DNA of 64,000 nt, taken from the NCBI RefSeq assembly GCF_014805625.2, contig NW_023998431.1, positions 4,120,168-4,184,167 on the forward strand, given 5' to 3'. Numbering within the stretch: the first letter of the stretch is position 1; the number at the start of each line of letters is the position of its first letter. Made by a program: the position numbers and the translations under genes. Shown here piece after piece: positions 57,445 through 61,256 of the stretch. The notes below the pieces were generated by a model. That model was not told the origin of the DNA. It worked only from the letters and a program-made list of their open reading frames with translations, and did not search any database. Source of the stretch: Glossina fuscipes (lineage: Eukaryota > Arthropoda > Insecta > Diptera > Glossinidae).

Positions 57445-57629
57445 CTTGGGCAGCAAAGACTTGATAGAATTGTGACAGATAGGTGAGTATTGATAGCCGA
57501 TCGGGTACTTCATAGGCGGCCATATCATCGGCATCCAATAGCGCAGGTATACCCAAATACTTTTCAGCTGTCGTAAATGCTAACGAATTGTTGTAATAAA
57601 CATCGGCTTTATTCAATTTATCAAAATCA
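57445..57629 (-). CDS. MICAL-like: MICAL-like exon, C-terminal half of the CH domain
   Basis: This 185-bp minus-strand exon lies between an acceptor with a good pyrimidine tract (TTTTCCATTTCAG) and a donor (CAAG|GTAAAT). It contributes 1 nt, 61 codons and 1 nt. The peptide runs from DFDKLNKADVYYNNSLAF through AEKYLGIPALLDADDM to VPDRLSILTYLSQFYQVF. LGIPALLD-x2-DM and PDRLSILTY-x-SQ-x-Y are hallmarks of the CH domain of MICAL-like/EHBP1-type proteins. Type-2 CH domains of this kind bind actin only weakly and serve as protein-interaction modules. With the LIM exon downstream on the same strand, the order CH-LIM supports MICAL-like rather than EHBP1. The exon carrying the first half of the CH domain (start Met to the HHFRPDLI region) was not found between 57630 and 64000 and is probably outside the window. 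Confidence 0.92.
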
Positions 57630-58979
57630 CTGAAATGGAAAACAGAATCGAAATAAAAAATTATAGAAATCAATATTTAACAAGTTTATTATATTCTAAT
57701 TAAGTGAGGTATTTGAGCATAACGAATTATTAGAGAATAGCGAATAAAGAAAAACAAATAGACGCAAATATATATATATATATACATAAATATATATATA
57801 TATTAAAAATAAGTAAGATTGTATAGGTGGTGGGAGGAAAATAAAAACAGGGTCAAAACTGATTTTTTATATGATTAATGTTAACTAATCACGTACAGTC
57901 CAGTTTCTGCTTCTATTATAAGCTACGATGATTAATCTTTTAATTAAAAGATTACCTTATTTTGATATCTTTTGTTTGTAATGCCGGTATTTAGCAGATT
58001 TTCTTTCCTTTCTTTCAAAACACATTTAACCATAAGTAAGGAGGTAAGTAAACAAATGTTACATTTATCGATTTAATGCGAAACTTTTTTTAAATTATTT
58101 TATTTATATATATGTGAAACTAGTTTCACTTTTCGTGAACGAACGAATGGACTGCCATGCTTAGAATGCTCCAGAATGTTAATGTGAATAAGAATTACAT
58201 TTATTTTATATTTCTTACGATTATGGAAGGTCTGTCACAAACGGTGTCGTAAAAGTTGGTATGAAATGTAGGACTATAGAGCGCCACATAAGATAACGTA
58301 GAAGGAGAATCTTAACTGAATGTCAATCAAAATGAAAAAAAAAAAAAAGAAACGTATAATATCAAAATTAAAACTTTTCGAACCAAATGCGAGCGAAATT
58401 TTTCTGCTTACATATGTCAAGAAAAATGTTAAATGAACGATGCCTTCTTCAATAACTTATGATTATTTTATCATATATATATTTTATTGTTTAGAGTATC
58501 ATACGAGAGTAGTATATATTGATGATTAAAATATTAATCGAAAGTCCCATTATTTCCCGTATTTGTAATCATATATTTATCCCAGCAACTCATAAATAAT
58601 TGCGTCAACTAAAAATCGTTCTTGTACACGTTAGCTTACGTTTATGTGATCTCTGGACAAATTCTTGGCCACATTTGATTGTTTTTCAAAGTTGGTTTTA
58701 GATTCTTATGTAACAAATGCATATATACATAACAAACACATATGCAAACATATGCCTTTGTGAATACCGAAAACTTGCCAATATTCGAAAATTCGTTCTC
58801 GAAGTGGCTAACCCTATGGGAATCCTGAAAACATCTCGTAAATGTACAATAAAATATTTAACTTTATTAAGGCGACCAGACTCACCATCTAGTCTACCTT
58901 AAAAAGAAAACAAGTAACAATAATTCATTCGTTTTGGTAGTAATACACCAAAAATTACGGATTATATTCATCCAATGGC

Positions 58980-59350: not shown

Positions 59351-59948
59351 ATAATACATTCTATAAGGCTGCTGGAGTAGCTATAAAGCATGCGGCAAAT
59401 ATTATCTAGGTTAAGCTAAGAGGCTAATGTAAAAATGATCACGATCTAATGCATCTCTAATTTATTGATTTGAGGATACGGGTATCGAAGTCTCCTCTAA
59501 GAGCTAATAACTGGATCTGTAAGGCTTCCCAAAGCAAAAGCCCCCAAAGCAAAAATTTTCAAAATTAAGGGGCGGTATTTTGCAACTATTAGTCGATTCA
59601 TTTCTATCTATTACGATGTTATTCGCAGGCTATGTTTGGTGTTTAACACACATTTGTTAGAGAAGTAGATGTCAATAGCGTAGCGTATATCAGCCGATGT
59701 GCGTTTAATTATTGCACCTTGATGAACCTTTGTGCTATACTTAAGTTATCTTTAGATTTAGATGACGTACTTTTAATTAAAACCTATTTTCCGCAATTAT
59801 TTCTTTCGCTTCGCTATATTTCCTAATAGTGAGAATTGCAGTGTTCTACATGAAGCAGATGGCTGGCATTCCACTTAATCGAATCGATGTTGATTTTGTT
59901 TTTTTAGTTCATAGCGTGTTGAAAGCATATCTTGTCATGTTGCTTATT

Positions 59949-60061
59949 ATACATTTAAACATTTTTTTATATTCCGTTCATGTTCTTTAAAAACTATATG
60001 CTTTTCTTCTTCTAATTTTTAAGTGTGGTACAGTAAGTGAAGCAACCACAAGGTAACAAAA
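59949..60061. repeat. 113-bp direct repeat, left copy
   Basis: It starts ATACATTTAAACATTTTTTT and ends AGCAACCACAAGGTAACAAAA. It matches 61145-61256 apart from about six substitutions and one 1-bp indel. It most simply reads as a long target-site duplication around the element between the copies. Confidence 0.9.
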
Positions 60062-60118
60062 CCCTCACCTCCAAGTGGTGATCCCCGGGCAACGGCTTCG
60101 GCCGGCGAAGAAGGGTTT
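60059..60118 (+). ncRNA. HDV-like self-cleaving ribozyme core lacking the 5' strand of P1
   Basis: The elements appear in order: P2 5' strand AAACCCT (60059-60065); P3 CAC (60066-60068) and GTG (60075-60077) closing loop CTCCAA with the CC of P1.1; P1 3' strand GTGATCCCC (60078-60086); GGGCAAC (60087-60093); P4 GGC-TTCG-GCC (60094-60103); GGCGAA with the catalytic C at 60106; P2 3' strand AGGGTTT (60112-60118), pairing over 7 bp. The GGGCAAC...UUCG...GGCGAA order is the signature of HDV-type ribozymes. The 5' strand complementary to GTGATCCCC (expected GGGGATCAC) is not present upstream, where flanking repeat begins, so this copy should not cleave itself. In R2 and related non-LTR elements such ribozymes form the 5' end. 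Confidence 0.8.
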
Positions 60119-61144
60119 AAGGTTTTGGACTAACATAACTCGGCGATGAGTTTTCTGAGAAATGGTGTAGGGGTTCGCTGGAAGATGAACTCTTCGCTCA
60201 TGAAGCTAACTACTACCTAGGAAGTTAATAGGTTATAGTACGTAGAGGTAGTAACTTAGCGAGTGCATGGTAGATCGCCCCTGTCGTGTCAGTGCAATGC
60301 CCCAGACTTATATATCTCGATGAAGAGTAGTTCTGGTGTTGGCTAGCCGGGATGGTATGGCTAATCCAAAGGCAAGTAGTCTGAGTTTCAGCTGCGCAAA
60401 GTACGCTTAAGGCTTTGCATTATAAACTGGGAGCCACGGGGGTCAGGAGGCTCGCTCACTAAGCCATGTATGCCTGCAGGTAAATGATGGGATTTGTGTT
60501 TAAAAGTCGTAACATAAATTAAAGATAATGATAAAAGATCATAATGATAAAAAGGATTTTGACGCAAGGCTTCTCCTTTGGCCTATTTAAATAATAAAAG
60601 GGAAATAGACGGAAGGCTTCCCCTTTAAATTCCTACTCTATAATAAAAATTGAGAATTTTCTCTATAAATAATAATATAGAAAGGGATTTGACAGAAGGC
60701 TTTTTACCCTTTTTGCCTATCACACTTTTGAACATATATCCACGGATGCCTAGCGGCAATGGATCAACCGCGCTTGTGGAAACCTTATGGTGGAAGCAAG
60801 CGCATTTTTCTTTCCCGTTTTTGAATTCTTTTGAGTTGGTCAATTTGTGAGCCCTGACTGCTTGGGTGCGGCCCTTTGGGAAGTACTCGTGGTGGTTGTG
60901 GTTGGCAGTTACAAGCCAACGTTGAACAATCGAGTGCAGCTAGGCCTCACCACTGACCAGAGTGGGGTTTATTGATCCATACGCAATAAATCATTCTGGA
61001 CTCAGGTGCTGCTTAGGCCCCTACTCTGTAGGGATTGTCTAACTCGCCAGGGGGCGTATACTAAGCTTAAAATGACTTGGGGTTAGGCCATCATGGGTTA
61101 AGCCATCATGGCAGGAAGCCACGTTAAGCCCAGGTTACAAATCT
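60062..61144 (+). mobile_element. Ribozyme-led, G+C-richer retroelement, probably non-autonomous
   Basis: About 1.08 kb inserted between 112-113 bp direct repeats. It opens with a truncated HDV-like ribozyme. Then comes a structured-looking segment without an ORF (GTAGATCGCCCCTGTCGTG, GTTCTGGTGTTGGCTAGCCG, GGGAGCCACGGGGGTCAGG), an AT-rich part with three hairpin modules (60549-60719), and a second G+C-rich part (CCACTGACCAGAGTGGGG, CGCCAGGGGGCGTATAC, GGCCATCATGGGTTAAGCC). It has no reverse-transcriptase coding sequence and no terminal poly(A). Plausible readings: 5'UTR plus 3'UTR of a non-LTR element joined by internal deletion, or an independent non-autonomous family. Clade (R2, RTE, LOA) cannot be told from the sequence. 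Confidence 0.6.
60549..60719 (+). repeat. Three copies of a hairpin-forming module
   Basis: Units at 60549-60585, 60596-60635 and 60681-60719 share AAAGG-x-A/T-TTGAC-x-NAAGGCTT-pyrimidines-CCTTT and end in CCTA. In each, the opening AAAGG(G) can pair with the closing (C)CCTTT. The stem bases vary together in part (GG/CC in unit 1, GGG/CCC in units 2 and 3). Confidence 0.65.
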
Positions 61145-61256
61145 ATACATATAAACATTTTTTTATATTCCGTTAATGTTCGTTAAAAACTATATGCTTT
61201 TCTTCTCATAATTTTTAAGTGTGTACAGTAAGTGAAGCAACCACAAGGTAACAAAA
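61145..61256. repeat. 112-bp direct repeat, right copy
   Basis: ATACATATAAACATTTTTTT to AGCAACCACAAGGTAACAAAA. After it the flanking sequence goes on as TACTTGGGC, whereas the left copy runs into CCCTCACC. Confidence 0.9.

What the first reader, a model, noticed from the sequence alone, without database searches (positions are those of the whole stretch)
60059..60118. HDV-like ribozyme core at the 5' end of an intronic insert
Seen: 7-bp P2, 3-bp P3 with CC in its loop for P1.1, P1' GTGATCCCC, GGGCAAC, a UUCG-capped P4 and GGCGAA, in the correct order and spacing. Known: such ribozymes process the 5' ends of R2-type and other non-LTR retrotransposons. Inferred: the P1 5' strand is missing because the copy was cut short by incomplete reverse transcription through the folded RNA. 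Full copies elsewhere in this genome should begin with GGGGATCAC or a covarying version.
Basis: partly seen in the sequence, partly recalled or inferred. Interest (0 to 1): 0.9.

Follow-up and report, generated by a model that had tools for sequence, protein, structure and literature searches.

The report
Ribozyme-headed retrotransposon parasite in tsetse
Inside a gene of what is very likely a tsetse fly genome lies a shortened copy of a repeated mobile element; its complete copies begin with the sequence of a predicted self-cutting RNA (an HDV-like ribozyme), which would trim the element's RNA before a larger retrotransposon, whose tail the element shares, likely copies it back into the genome.

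Summary
The core at 60059-60118 is real: a strict descriptor, written after seeing it, finds it once in the window and never in 6000 shuffles. It heads a 1082-bp insert without long ORFs (60062-61143) between 114/113-nt direct repeats, antisense in a MICAL-like intron of a probable Glossina genome. The genome search scored 40 copies (39 without one duplicate contig). 26 of 39 start GGGG[A/T]GATAAA, 41-42 nt upstream of AAACCCT, so the missing P1 strand exists at the very 5' end. It is not GGGGATCAC: P1 has about five pairs, then possible G-A pairs, and J1/2 holds a hairpin. P2 shows some compensatory changes; P1 shows none. The last ~110 nt match the 3' end of an APE/RT/RNase H LINE, suggesting a SIDE-like parasite moved in trans. 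Eight of 39 insertions share one place in a MITE, apparently hit more than once. The window copy lost its first 41 nt at a 3-nt AAA microhomology, which fits microhomology priming better than blocked reverse transcription. Self-cleavage is untested, and whether the LINE carries the ribozyme is open, because the genome search stopped answering.

The parts
59948..60061 (+). left copy of the target-site duplication (114 nt), ending GGTAACAAAA
   Evidence: direct repeat, 94.7% identical to 61144-61256
60062..61143 (+). 5'-truncated copy of the non-autonomous element (1082 bp, longest stop-free frame 104 aa); its first 41 nt are missing relative to complete copies
   Evidence: GC 0.433 in 60001-61000 against 0.25-0.38 in the other 1-kb bins
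60059..60065 (+). P2 5' strand AAACCCT; its AAA also reads as the end of the target duplication
   Evidence: sequence; P2 compensatory changes among copies
60067..60079 (+). P3 (ACC/GGT) and L3 TCCAAGT; CC at 60071-60072 for P1.1
60080..60086 (+). P1' strand GATCCCC; TCCCC (60082-60086) is complementary to GGGGA at the 5' end of A-type complete copies
60087..60093 (+). GGGCAAC (P1.1 GG and J1.1/4)
60093..60104 (+). P4 stem-loop CGGC-TTCG-GCCG
   Evidence: 95.0% of cells paired among copies
60105..60111 (+). J4/2 GCGAAGA; C60106 at the position of the HDV catalytic cytosine (C75 by recall)
   Evidence: C kept in 36 of 38 aligned copies; T in L006 and L015
60112..60118 (+). P2 3' strand AGGGTTT
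61028..61143 (+). 3' tail shared with an APE/RT/RNase H LINE; probable recognition site for that LINE's machinery
   Evidence: element 970-1069 (window 61028-61127) matches the 3' end of the LINE in L041 at 77%; 83-92% between that LINE and eight other loci
61144..61256 (+). right copy of the target-site duplication (113 nt), beginning TATACAT
57461..57640 (-). calponin-homology exon of the host MICAL-like gene; the element lies antisense in the intron before it

Best explanation
The insert is a 5'-truncated copy of a repeated element, very likely a non-autonomous retrotransposon of a tsetse genome, whose complete copies begin with a predicted HDV-like ribozyme that would cut the element's RNA out of a longer transcript exactly at its 5' end. 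Shown: the family, its common 5' end at GGGG, a core kept in sequence and structure, target duplications found by script in 19 of 32 copies with a readable 5' end, and a 3' tail shared with a LINE that has APE, RT and RNase H domains. Inferred: (1) a transcript that runs into the element folds with P1 GGGGA/UCCCC, a hairpin in J1/2 and the catalytic C of J4/2, and cuts before G1; (2) the freed RNA is recognised through its ~110-nt 3' tail by the LINE protein and inserted by target-primed reverse transcription, often at TGT- or TAT-type sites; (3) in the window copy the top strand, ending in AAAA after an unusually distant second nick, primed on the complementary TTT of the cDNA just upstream of the core, so the outer 41 nt including the P1 5' strand were lost. 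The window copy itself is then a fossil that is predicted not to cleave at its own 5' end.
For: Strict descriptor (written after seeing the sequence): one hit in the window, 0 of 6000 shuffles. 40 scored genome matches at E <= 5e-109 out of 516 candidates, most of them starting at 60059. 26 of 39 copies (L018 dropped as a duplicate of L017) begin GGGG[A/T]GATAAA. 19 of 32 copies with a readable 5' end have a direct repeat found by a script that looked only within 3 nt of G1; the 12 exact ones are 10-14 nt long; earlier listings show one in five more (L002, L025, L031, L039, L040). Pairing over 35 distinct ribozymes: 94.6% of cells against at most 54.0% when slid; P1 89.1%, P2 97.1%, J1/2 hairpin 95.9%; P2 pair 47/98 changes C-G to U-A in 5 and pair 46/99 in 1; cells changed on both sides 6 against 1.8 +/- 1.2 in shuffles, reached in 1 of 500; covariation score reached in 2 of 500. 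The plain RNAfold minimum of the complete ribozyme of L013 contains GGGGA/UCCCC and the J1/2 hairpin, though not P2, which would be a pseudoknot. The first ~140 nt are conserved (0.92-0.96 mean pairwise identity in 20-nt bins) against 0.57-0.92 further in (28 copies). LINE with the same tail: Pfam PF03372, PF14529, PF00078, PF00075. Microhomology-primed variable 5' junctions are proposed for R2s that cleave at their own 5' end (PMC3774820, abstract). A base-paired J1/2 (P1.2) strongly speeds the Agam-2 ribozyme (PMC4908430, passages).
Against: No cleavage was tested. P1 has only 5 Watson-Crick pairs in the common A type. In the T type position 5 is a U-U mismatch in that register (7 of 35 rows), and ViennaRNA pairs it one base out of register, GGGGU/AUCCC. 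The window copy has the J4/2 of the T type (GCGAAG), so its lost strand was probably GGGGUGA. Both are shorter than the 6-7 bp called typical in PMC4908430, and P1 mismatches, a U-U among them, are blamed for weak or inactive ribozymes in PMC3774820 section 12. P1 shows no two-sided change. The number of pairs with two-sided change (2) and of further pair types (14) is not above shuffles (reached in 227 and 205 of 500), and the five U-A cases may be one inherited event. Rfam scores stay below the gathering score (29.8 and at best 34.2 of 44). Positions 101-140 are as conserved as the ribozyme, so selection on the ribozyme alone is not isolated. No chance control was run for the target duplications, some of which allow 1-2 mismatches. 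A 3-nt microhomology can arise by chance. The only LINE examined (L041, broken) showed no ribozyme of its own. In PMC4908430 a structured J1/2 alone did not suffice without an extended P2, which this family lacks.
Confidence: 0.72

Rival explanations
1. The conserved 5' segment is mainly an internal promoter: transcription starts at GGGG and the HDV-like fold is secondary or inactive.
For: A 5' segment can be promoter and ribozyme at once, as Pr77 of L1Tc (PMC4035085, section 3). Conservation runs on past the ribozyme to about position 140. P1 is short.
Against: A start site does not need P1-P1', P1.1, P3, P4 and the J4/2 cytosine in HDV order; these helices are paired in 89-97% of cells and the strict descriptor is absent from 6000 shuffles.
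Confidence: 0.16
2. An ordinary SINE with a tRNA-type Pol III head that happens to resemble an HDV ribozyme.
For: Short, dispersed, shares a LINE tail.
Against: ARAGORN finds no tRNA in 7 loci with copies. Rfam lists no tRNA, 5S or 7SL match in the window stretch or 6 copy loci; besides RF02682 it lists only weak, unrelated matches below gathering (ncr952, STnc170, DUF805b, PK-repBA).
Confidence: 0.04
3. The window copy lacks P1 because reverse transcription stalled on the folded ribozyme.
For: 5'-truncated copies are common: 7 of 39 lack some or all of the first 41 nt, and loci with only the 3' region exist (L054, L056, L067, L068, L075, L076).
Against: The break is on the far side of the fold, after P2', P4 and P1' were copied, and lies at an AAA shared with the end of the target duplication. 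The other six truncations scatter through J1/2; which copies were seen is biased by a query that began near 60059.
Confidence: 0.15
4. The copies inside the MITE spread as passengers of that DNA transposon, not by repeated retrotransposition into one site.
For: Eight of 39 copies sit at the same MITE place. L031 and L037, both in the MITE, are each other's nearest relatives.
Against: Insert and flank divergence do not correlate (r = 0.03 over 7 copies); L014 and L026 differ by 20% in the insert but only 4-9% in the flanks, and L014's six closest inserts lie outside the MITE.
Confidence: 0.25

Closest known systems
R2/R1 hybrid SIDEs and R2 SIDEs of Drosophila (PMC3414825; abstract and discussion section read)
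   Same: No ORF; HDV-like ribozyme at the 5' end; 3' end that a LINE machinery recognises; TSDs or variable 5' junctions.
   Different: Those sit in 28S genes and rely on rRNA co-transcription. This family is dispersed, over 1 kb long, and its tail matches an APE/RT/RNase H LINE. The source of its ribozyme is unknown.
RIME/NARTc of trypanosomatids with the Pr77 ribozyme (PMC4035085; abstract and section 3 read)
   Same: Non-autonomous elements with a 5' HDV-like ribozyme, related to an APE/RT/RNase H LINE.
   Different: There the LINE (L1Tc/ingi) carries the same 5' segment; here this could not be shown. The ribozyme here has a long J1/2 with a hairpin.
Agam-2 HDV-like ribozymes of Anopheles (PMC4908430; passages read)
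   Same: J1/2 holds a base-paired domain (P1.2).
   Different: Agam-2 has a 12-bp P2; here P2 is 7 bp and P1 has about five pairs.
R2 ribozymes (PMC3774820; abstract and sections 3, 12, 18, 19 read)
   Same: Same core order; element 5' end equals the predicted cut site, as in Drosophila R2; variable 5' junctions.
   Different: No 28S target and no R2 ORF seen in the copies read.
Rfam RF02682 HDV-F-prausnitzii
   Same: Best Rfam match of the window and of the copies scanned.
   Different: Below gathering score; the Rfam P1 falls on letters that mostly do not pair in these copies.

Membership tests
HDV-like ribozyme | Order P1, P2, P3, P1', P1.1, P4, J4/2, P2' with CC in L3 against GG | tested here: met
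   Complete copies carry all parts in order; 94.6% of cells paired over 35 distinct rows
HDV-like ribozyme | Catalytic cytosine in J4/2 | tested here: met
   36 of 38 aligned copies, including the window copy
HDV-like ribozyme | P1 of 6-7 bp (as in PMC4908430) | tested here: inconclusive
   5 Watson-Crick pairs in the A type, 4 (or 5 in a shifted register) in the T type, plus a possible G-A/A-G step; no covariation
HDV-like ribozyme | Rfam gathering score of a family | tested here: not met
   29.8 in the window, 34.2 at best among 6 copy loci, of 44
HDV-like ribozyme | Self-cleavage 5' of G1 | not testable with these tools
   Needs RNA; element 5' ends coincide with the predicted site
Non-autonomous TPRT retroelement (SIDE/SINE type) | No long ORF, TSDs, 5' truncations, dispersed copies | tested here: met
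Non-autonomous TPRT retroelement (SIDE/SINE type) | 3' tail shared with an autonomous LINE | tested here: met
   Tail match in L041, at the end of a broken LINE with APE/RT/RNase H
SIDE in the strict sense (5' and 3' ends of one LINE) | 5' end also shared with that LINE | tested here: inconclusive
   One broken LINE copy examined, no ribozyme of its own found; search for other LINE 5' ends not answered
R2 element | Insertion in 28S rRNA genes | tested here: not met
   The copies read lie at dispersed sites with varied TSDs
tRNA-derived SINE | tRNA-like head | tested here: not met
   No tRNA in 7 loci with copies

The most novel reading that the evidence does not exclude
A chimeric parasite: an HDV-like ribozyme head, taken from elsewhere, joined to the tail of an RNase H LINE. 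It frees its own RNA from any transcript it lands in, is copied by the LINE in trans, and repeatedly homes to one place in a DNA transposon (MITE), so that a multicopy MITE serves as its safe harbour as 28S genes do for R2. Its ribozyme gets by with a P1 of five Watson-Crick pairs finished by tandem G-A pairs, steadied by a J1/2 hairpin.
Probability: 0.4. Interest if true: 0.65.

Novelty: new variant of a known kind. Interest (0 to 1): 0.52.

Why it matters
Ribozyme-headed non-autonomous elements in the papers read here sit in rDNA (R2 SIDEs) or in trypanosomatids (RIME/NARTc). Four searches of the held library (listings only, titles and starts of abstracts, and only 12 of 50 papers) showed no report of one in tsetse. 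A dispersed family in an insect would show that an HDV-like ribozyme can serve a LINE-tailed parasite in place of a promoter. With dozens of natural variants, a short P1 and recurrent use of one MITE site, it gives a natural set for testing how little P1 an HDV-like ribozyme needs and how 5' junctions are made.

Tried and rejected
Rejected: R2 identity (dispersed sites, no R2 ORF seen). tRNA-type SINE. Significance from a loose descriptor (193 of 400 shuffles also hit) and from folding energy (z = -0.19). A phage or plasmid source (no match) and an exact 27-nt core in viral contigs (no match).

Led nowhere: ribozyme search of the LINE in L041; L059, thought to show the LINE's 5' end, shows two truncated copies upstream of LINE gag; the passages read in the 2013 and 2016 papers do not settle whether a five-pair P1 works. 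The literature search returned nothing useful.

Full report
Observation. The 60-nt core is present as described. In the canonical HDV register it reads P2 AAACCCT/AGGGTTT, P3 ACC/GGT, L3 TCCAAGT, P1' GATCCCC, GGGCAAC, P4 CGGC-TTCG-GCCG, J4/2 GCGAAGA. Rfam RF02682 aligns with 29.8 bits, below its gathering score of 44, and no Rfam family passes its cut-off anywhere in the window. A loose descriptor is met by chance in 193 of 400 shuffled windows. A strict one, written after seeing the sequence, is met in 0 of 6000 shuffles, once in the window, and in 22 of the 40 copy loci. Folding energy alone is unremarkable (z = -0.19).

Surroundings. The core starts a 1082-bp insert (60062-61143) between direct repeats of 114 and 113 nt, 94.7% identical. 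GC is 0.433 in 60001-61000 against 0.25-0.38 in the other 1-kb bins. There is no long ORF; the longest stop-free frame in the insert is 104 aa. A calponin-homology exon at about 57461-57640, minus strand, is 100% identical over 79% of the query to a Glossina palpalis gambiensis protein, so the organism is very likely a tsetse fly. A stretch that reads like the preceding MICAL-like exon lies at C346:4191363, minus strand (the match to MICAL is from memory), so the insert is in an intron of about 13.4 kb and antisense to the gene.

The family. A search of the window's own genome (366 Mb, 709 contigs) with 436 nt gave 40 scored matches out of 516 candidates, all at E <= 5e-109, the window itself among them (counts are lower bounds). 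One, L018, is a duplicate of L017 and was dropped, leaving 39. Of these, 26 begin exactly GGGG[A/T]GATAAA, 41 nt (42 in some subfamilies) upstream of AAACCCT; 3 more begin with a G-rich variant (L011, L027, L037); 3 are altered at the first bases (L009, L019, L039); 7 are truncated within the first 41 nt (L001 = the window, L017, L022, L023, L024, L029, L036). A script that looked only within 3 nt of G1 found a target duplication in 19 of the 32 copies with a readable 5' end: 12 exact ones of 10-14 nt, the rest with 1-2 mismatches, one of them in a local repeat (L034). Earlier listings show one in five more, L002, L025, L031, L039 and L040; the remaining eight were not resolved. The duplications often begin with, or one base before, TGT or TAT. 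No chance control was run for them.

The complete ribozyme. P1 is GGGGA paired with UCCCC in the A type (five Watson-Crick pairs), followed by G-A/A-G, which could form tandem sheared pairs (inference). In the T type (GGGGUGA) the fifth position is a U-U mismatch in this register, and ViennaRNA prefers GGGGU/AUCCC, one base out of register. J1/2 holds the hairpin CUAUGCU/AGCAUAG. On 35 distinct ribozymes (36 rows; L027 was left out of this set because part of its core is deleted, and five later copies were added) 94.6% of cells pair, against at most 54.0% when slid. P2 pair 47/98 is U-A instead of C-G in 5 rows and pair 46/99 in 1. Against shuffles: cells changed on both sides 6 against 1.8, reached in 1 of 500; covariation score reached in 2 of 500; percentage paired in 11 of 500; but pairs with two-sided change (2) reached in 227 of 500 and further pair types (14) in 205 of 500. 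P1 shows no two-sided change. So P2 is supported modestly and P1 rests on complementarity and position. The earlier 32-row alignment that includes L027 gives the same picture with weaker numbers.

Subfamilies. T at position 5 goes with J4/2 GCGAAG (GTGAAG in L006), A with GCUAAG (GUUGAG in L015). The window copy has GCGAAG, so its lost strand was probably GGGGUGA, the weaker P1.

Conservation. Of 38 copies aligned, 28 with an unaltered 5' end were used. Mean pairwise identity is 0.95 in J1/2, 0.93 in the core and 0.90 in the P1 strand; it stays at 0.92-0.96 in 20-nt bins to position 140 and is 0.57-0.92 beyond. Positions 101-140 are as conserved as the core, so the signal is not the ribozyme's alone.

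The partner. Next to copy L002 lies a broken LINE (L041) with a zinc-knuckle ORF (motif recognised from memory; no Pfam hit), APE (PF03372, PF14529), RT (PF00078) and RNase H (PF00075). Its last ~110 nt match the element's 3' end: 77% against the window copy, 83-92% against eight other loci. Of seven relatives of its RNase H ORF, five carry a Glossina name and two no name. Neither the model R1 nor Rfam found a ribozyme in this locus apart from the nested copy. A second search, with the 3' 304 nt, gave 42 matches (817 candidates, 40 scored); its 30 loci look like full or 5'-truncated copies, none with an RT stretch beside it by tblastn, and one (L059) near LINE gag. Whether intact LINEs of this family carry a ribozyme is open: the query was sent twelve times and not answered.

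A repeated target. Eight of 39 copies (L014, L020, L023, L026, L031, L037, L038, L040; and L065 among later loci) sit at one place in a repeat of roughly half a kilobase with inverted ends ATTGTTATGAAATTCGC / TTTTCGTAACAAT, a MITE by appearance. L023 is 5'-truncated and carries extra bases at its 5' junction. Insert and flank divergence do not correlate (r = 0.03 over 7 copies), and L014 and L026 have inserts 80% identical in flanks 91 and 96% identical. Against this, L031 and L037 are each other's nearest relatives, so some may be passengers. I read the whole as more than one insertion into a preferred site, TTAC|TATACCTAAATTT; the window's site begins TATACATTTAAA.

How the window copy lost P1. 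The cDNA had already covered P2', P4 and P1', so the fold was open when copying ended. The left duplication ends in AAAA and the complete element reads AAA at the same place. Priming of the second strand at this 3-nt microhomology explains the loss of 41 nt; the same is proposed for variable 5' junctions of R2s that cleave at their own 5' end (PMC3774820, abstract). The 114-nt duplication, against 10-14 nt in the exact cases elsewhere, also marks this as an unusual event. This step is inference.

Comparison. The closest kinds are R2 and R2/R1 SIDEs (PMC3414825) and RIME/NARTc (PMC4035085). The J1/2 hairpin recalls P1.2 of Agam-2 (PMC4908430), though there the benefit needed an extended P2 as well, which this family lacks; that counts against fast cleavage. 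P1 mismatches have been blamed for inactive ribozymes (PMC3774820 section 12). Verdict: a new variant of a known kind; activity untested. On checking, confidence was lowered from 0.74 to 0.72 because the T-type P1, probably that of the window copy's source, forms five pairs only out of register.

Noticed in passing
L014, L020, L023, L026, L031, L037, L038, L040, L065: Insertions at one place in a roughly half-kilobase TIR element (MITE by appearance); inserts and flanks diverge independently over 7 copies, which suggests a hot spot.
   Followed up: partly
L020:1459-3326: A second, 5'-truncated copy follows the first directly at the end of the first copy's target duplication, as if inserted into it or made by a template jump.
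   Followed up: no
L021, L025, L040; upstream flank of L017: A second type of 3' end, ...GCAGA(C/T)GTTAAACCC..AGAGCGATC, differs from ...CCACAAATTC; perhaps a different LINE partner.
   Followed up: no
window 60520-60720: AT-rich middle with three related stretches around GAC..AAGGCTT..; seen by eye, not analysed.
   Followed up: no
alignment A3, columns 5 and 91: Two subfamilies: T5 goes with J4/2 GCGAAG, A5 with GCUAAG; the latter holds a UAA, as reported for J4/2 of 18 of 19 Drosophila R2 but no SIDE (PMC3414825 discussion).
   Followed up: partly
complete copies, positions 24-28: A second GGGGA lies in the loop of the J1/2 hairpin and could compete for P1'.
   Followed up: no
L041 (G000:C229:917400-927300): Broken RNase H LINE with repeated stretches in its 5' region (seen by eye); of seven relatives of its RNase H ORF five are named Glossina, two unnamed.
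   Followed up: partly
L059: Two truncated copies with 3' ends about 580 nt apart lie upstream of a LINE gag stretch.
   Followed up: partly
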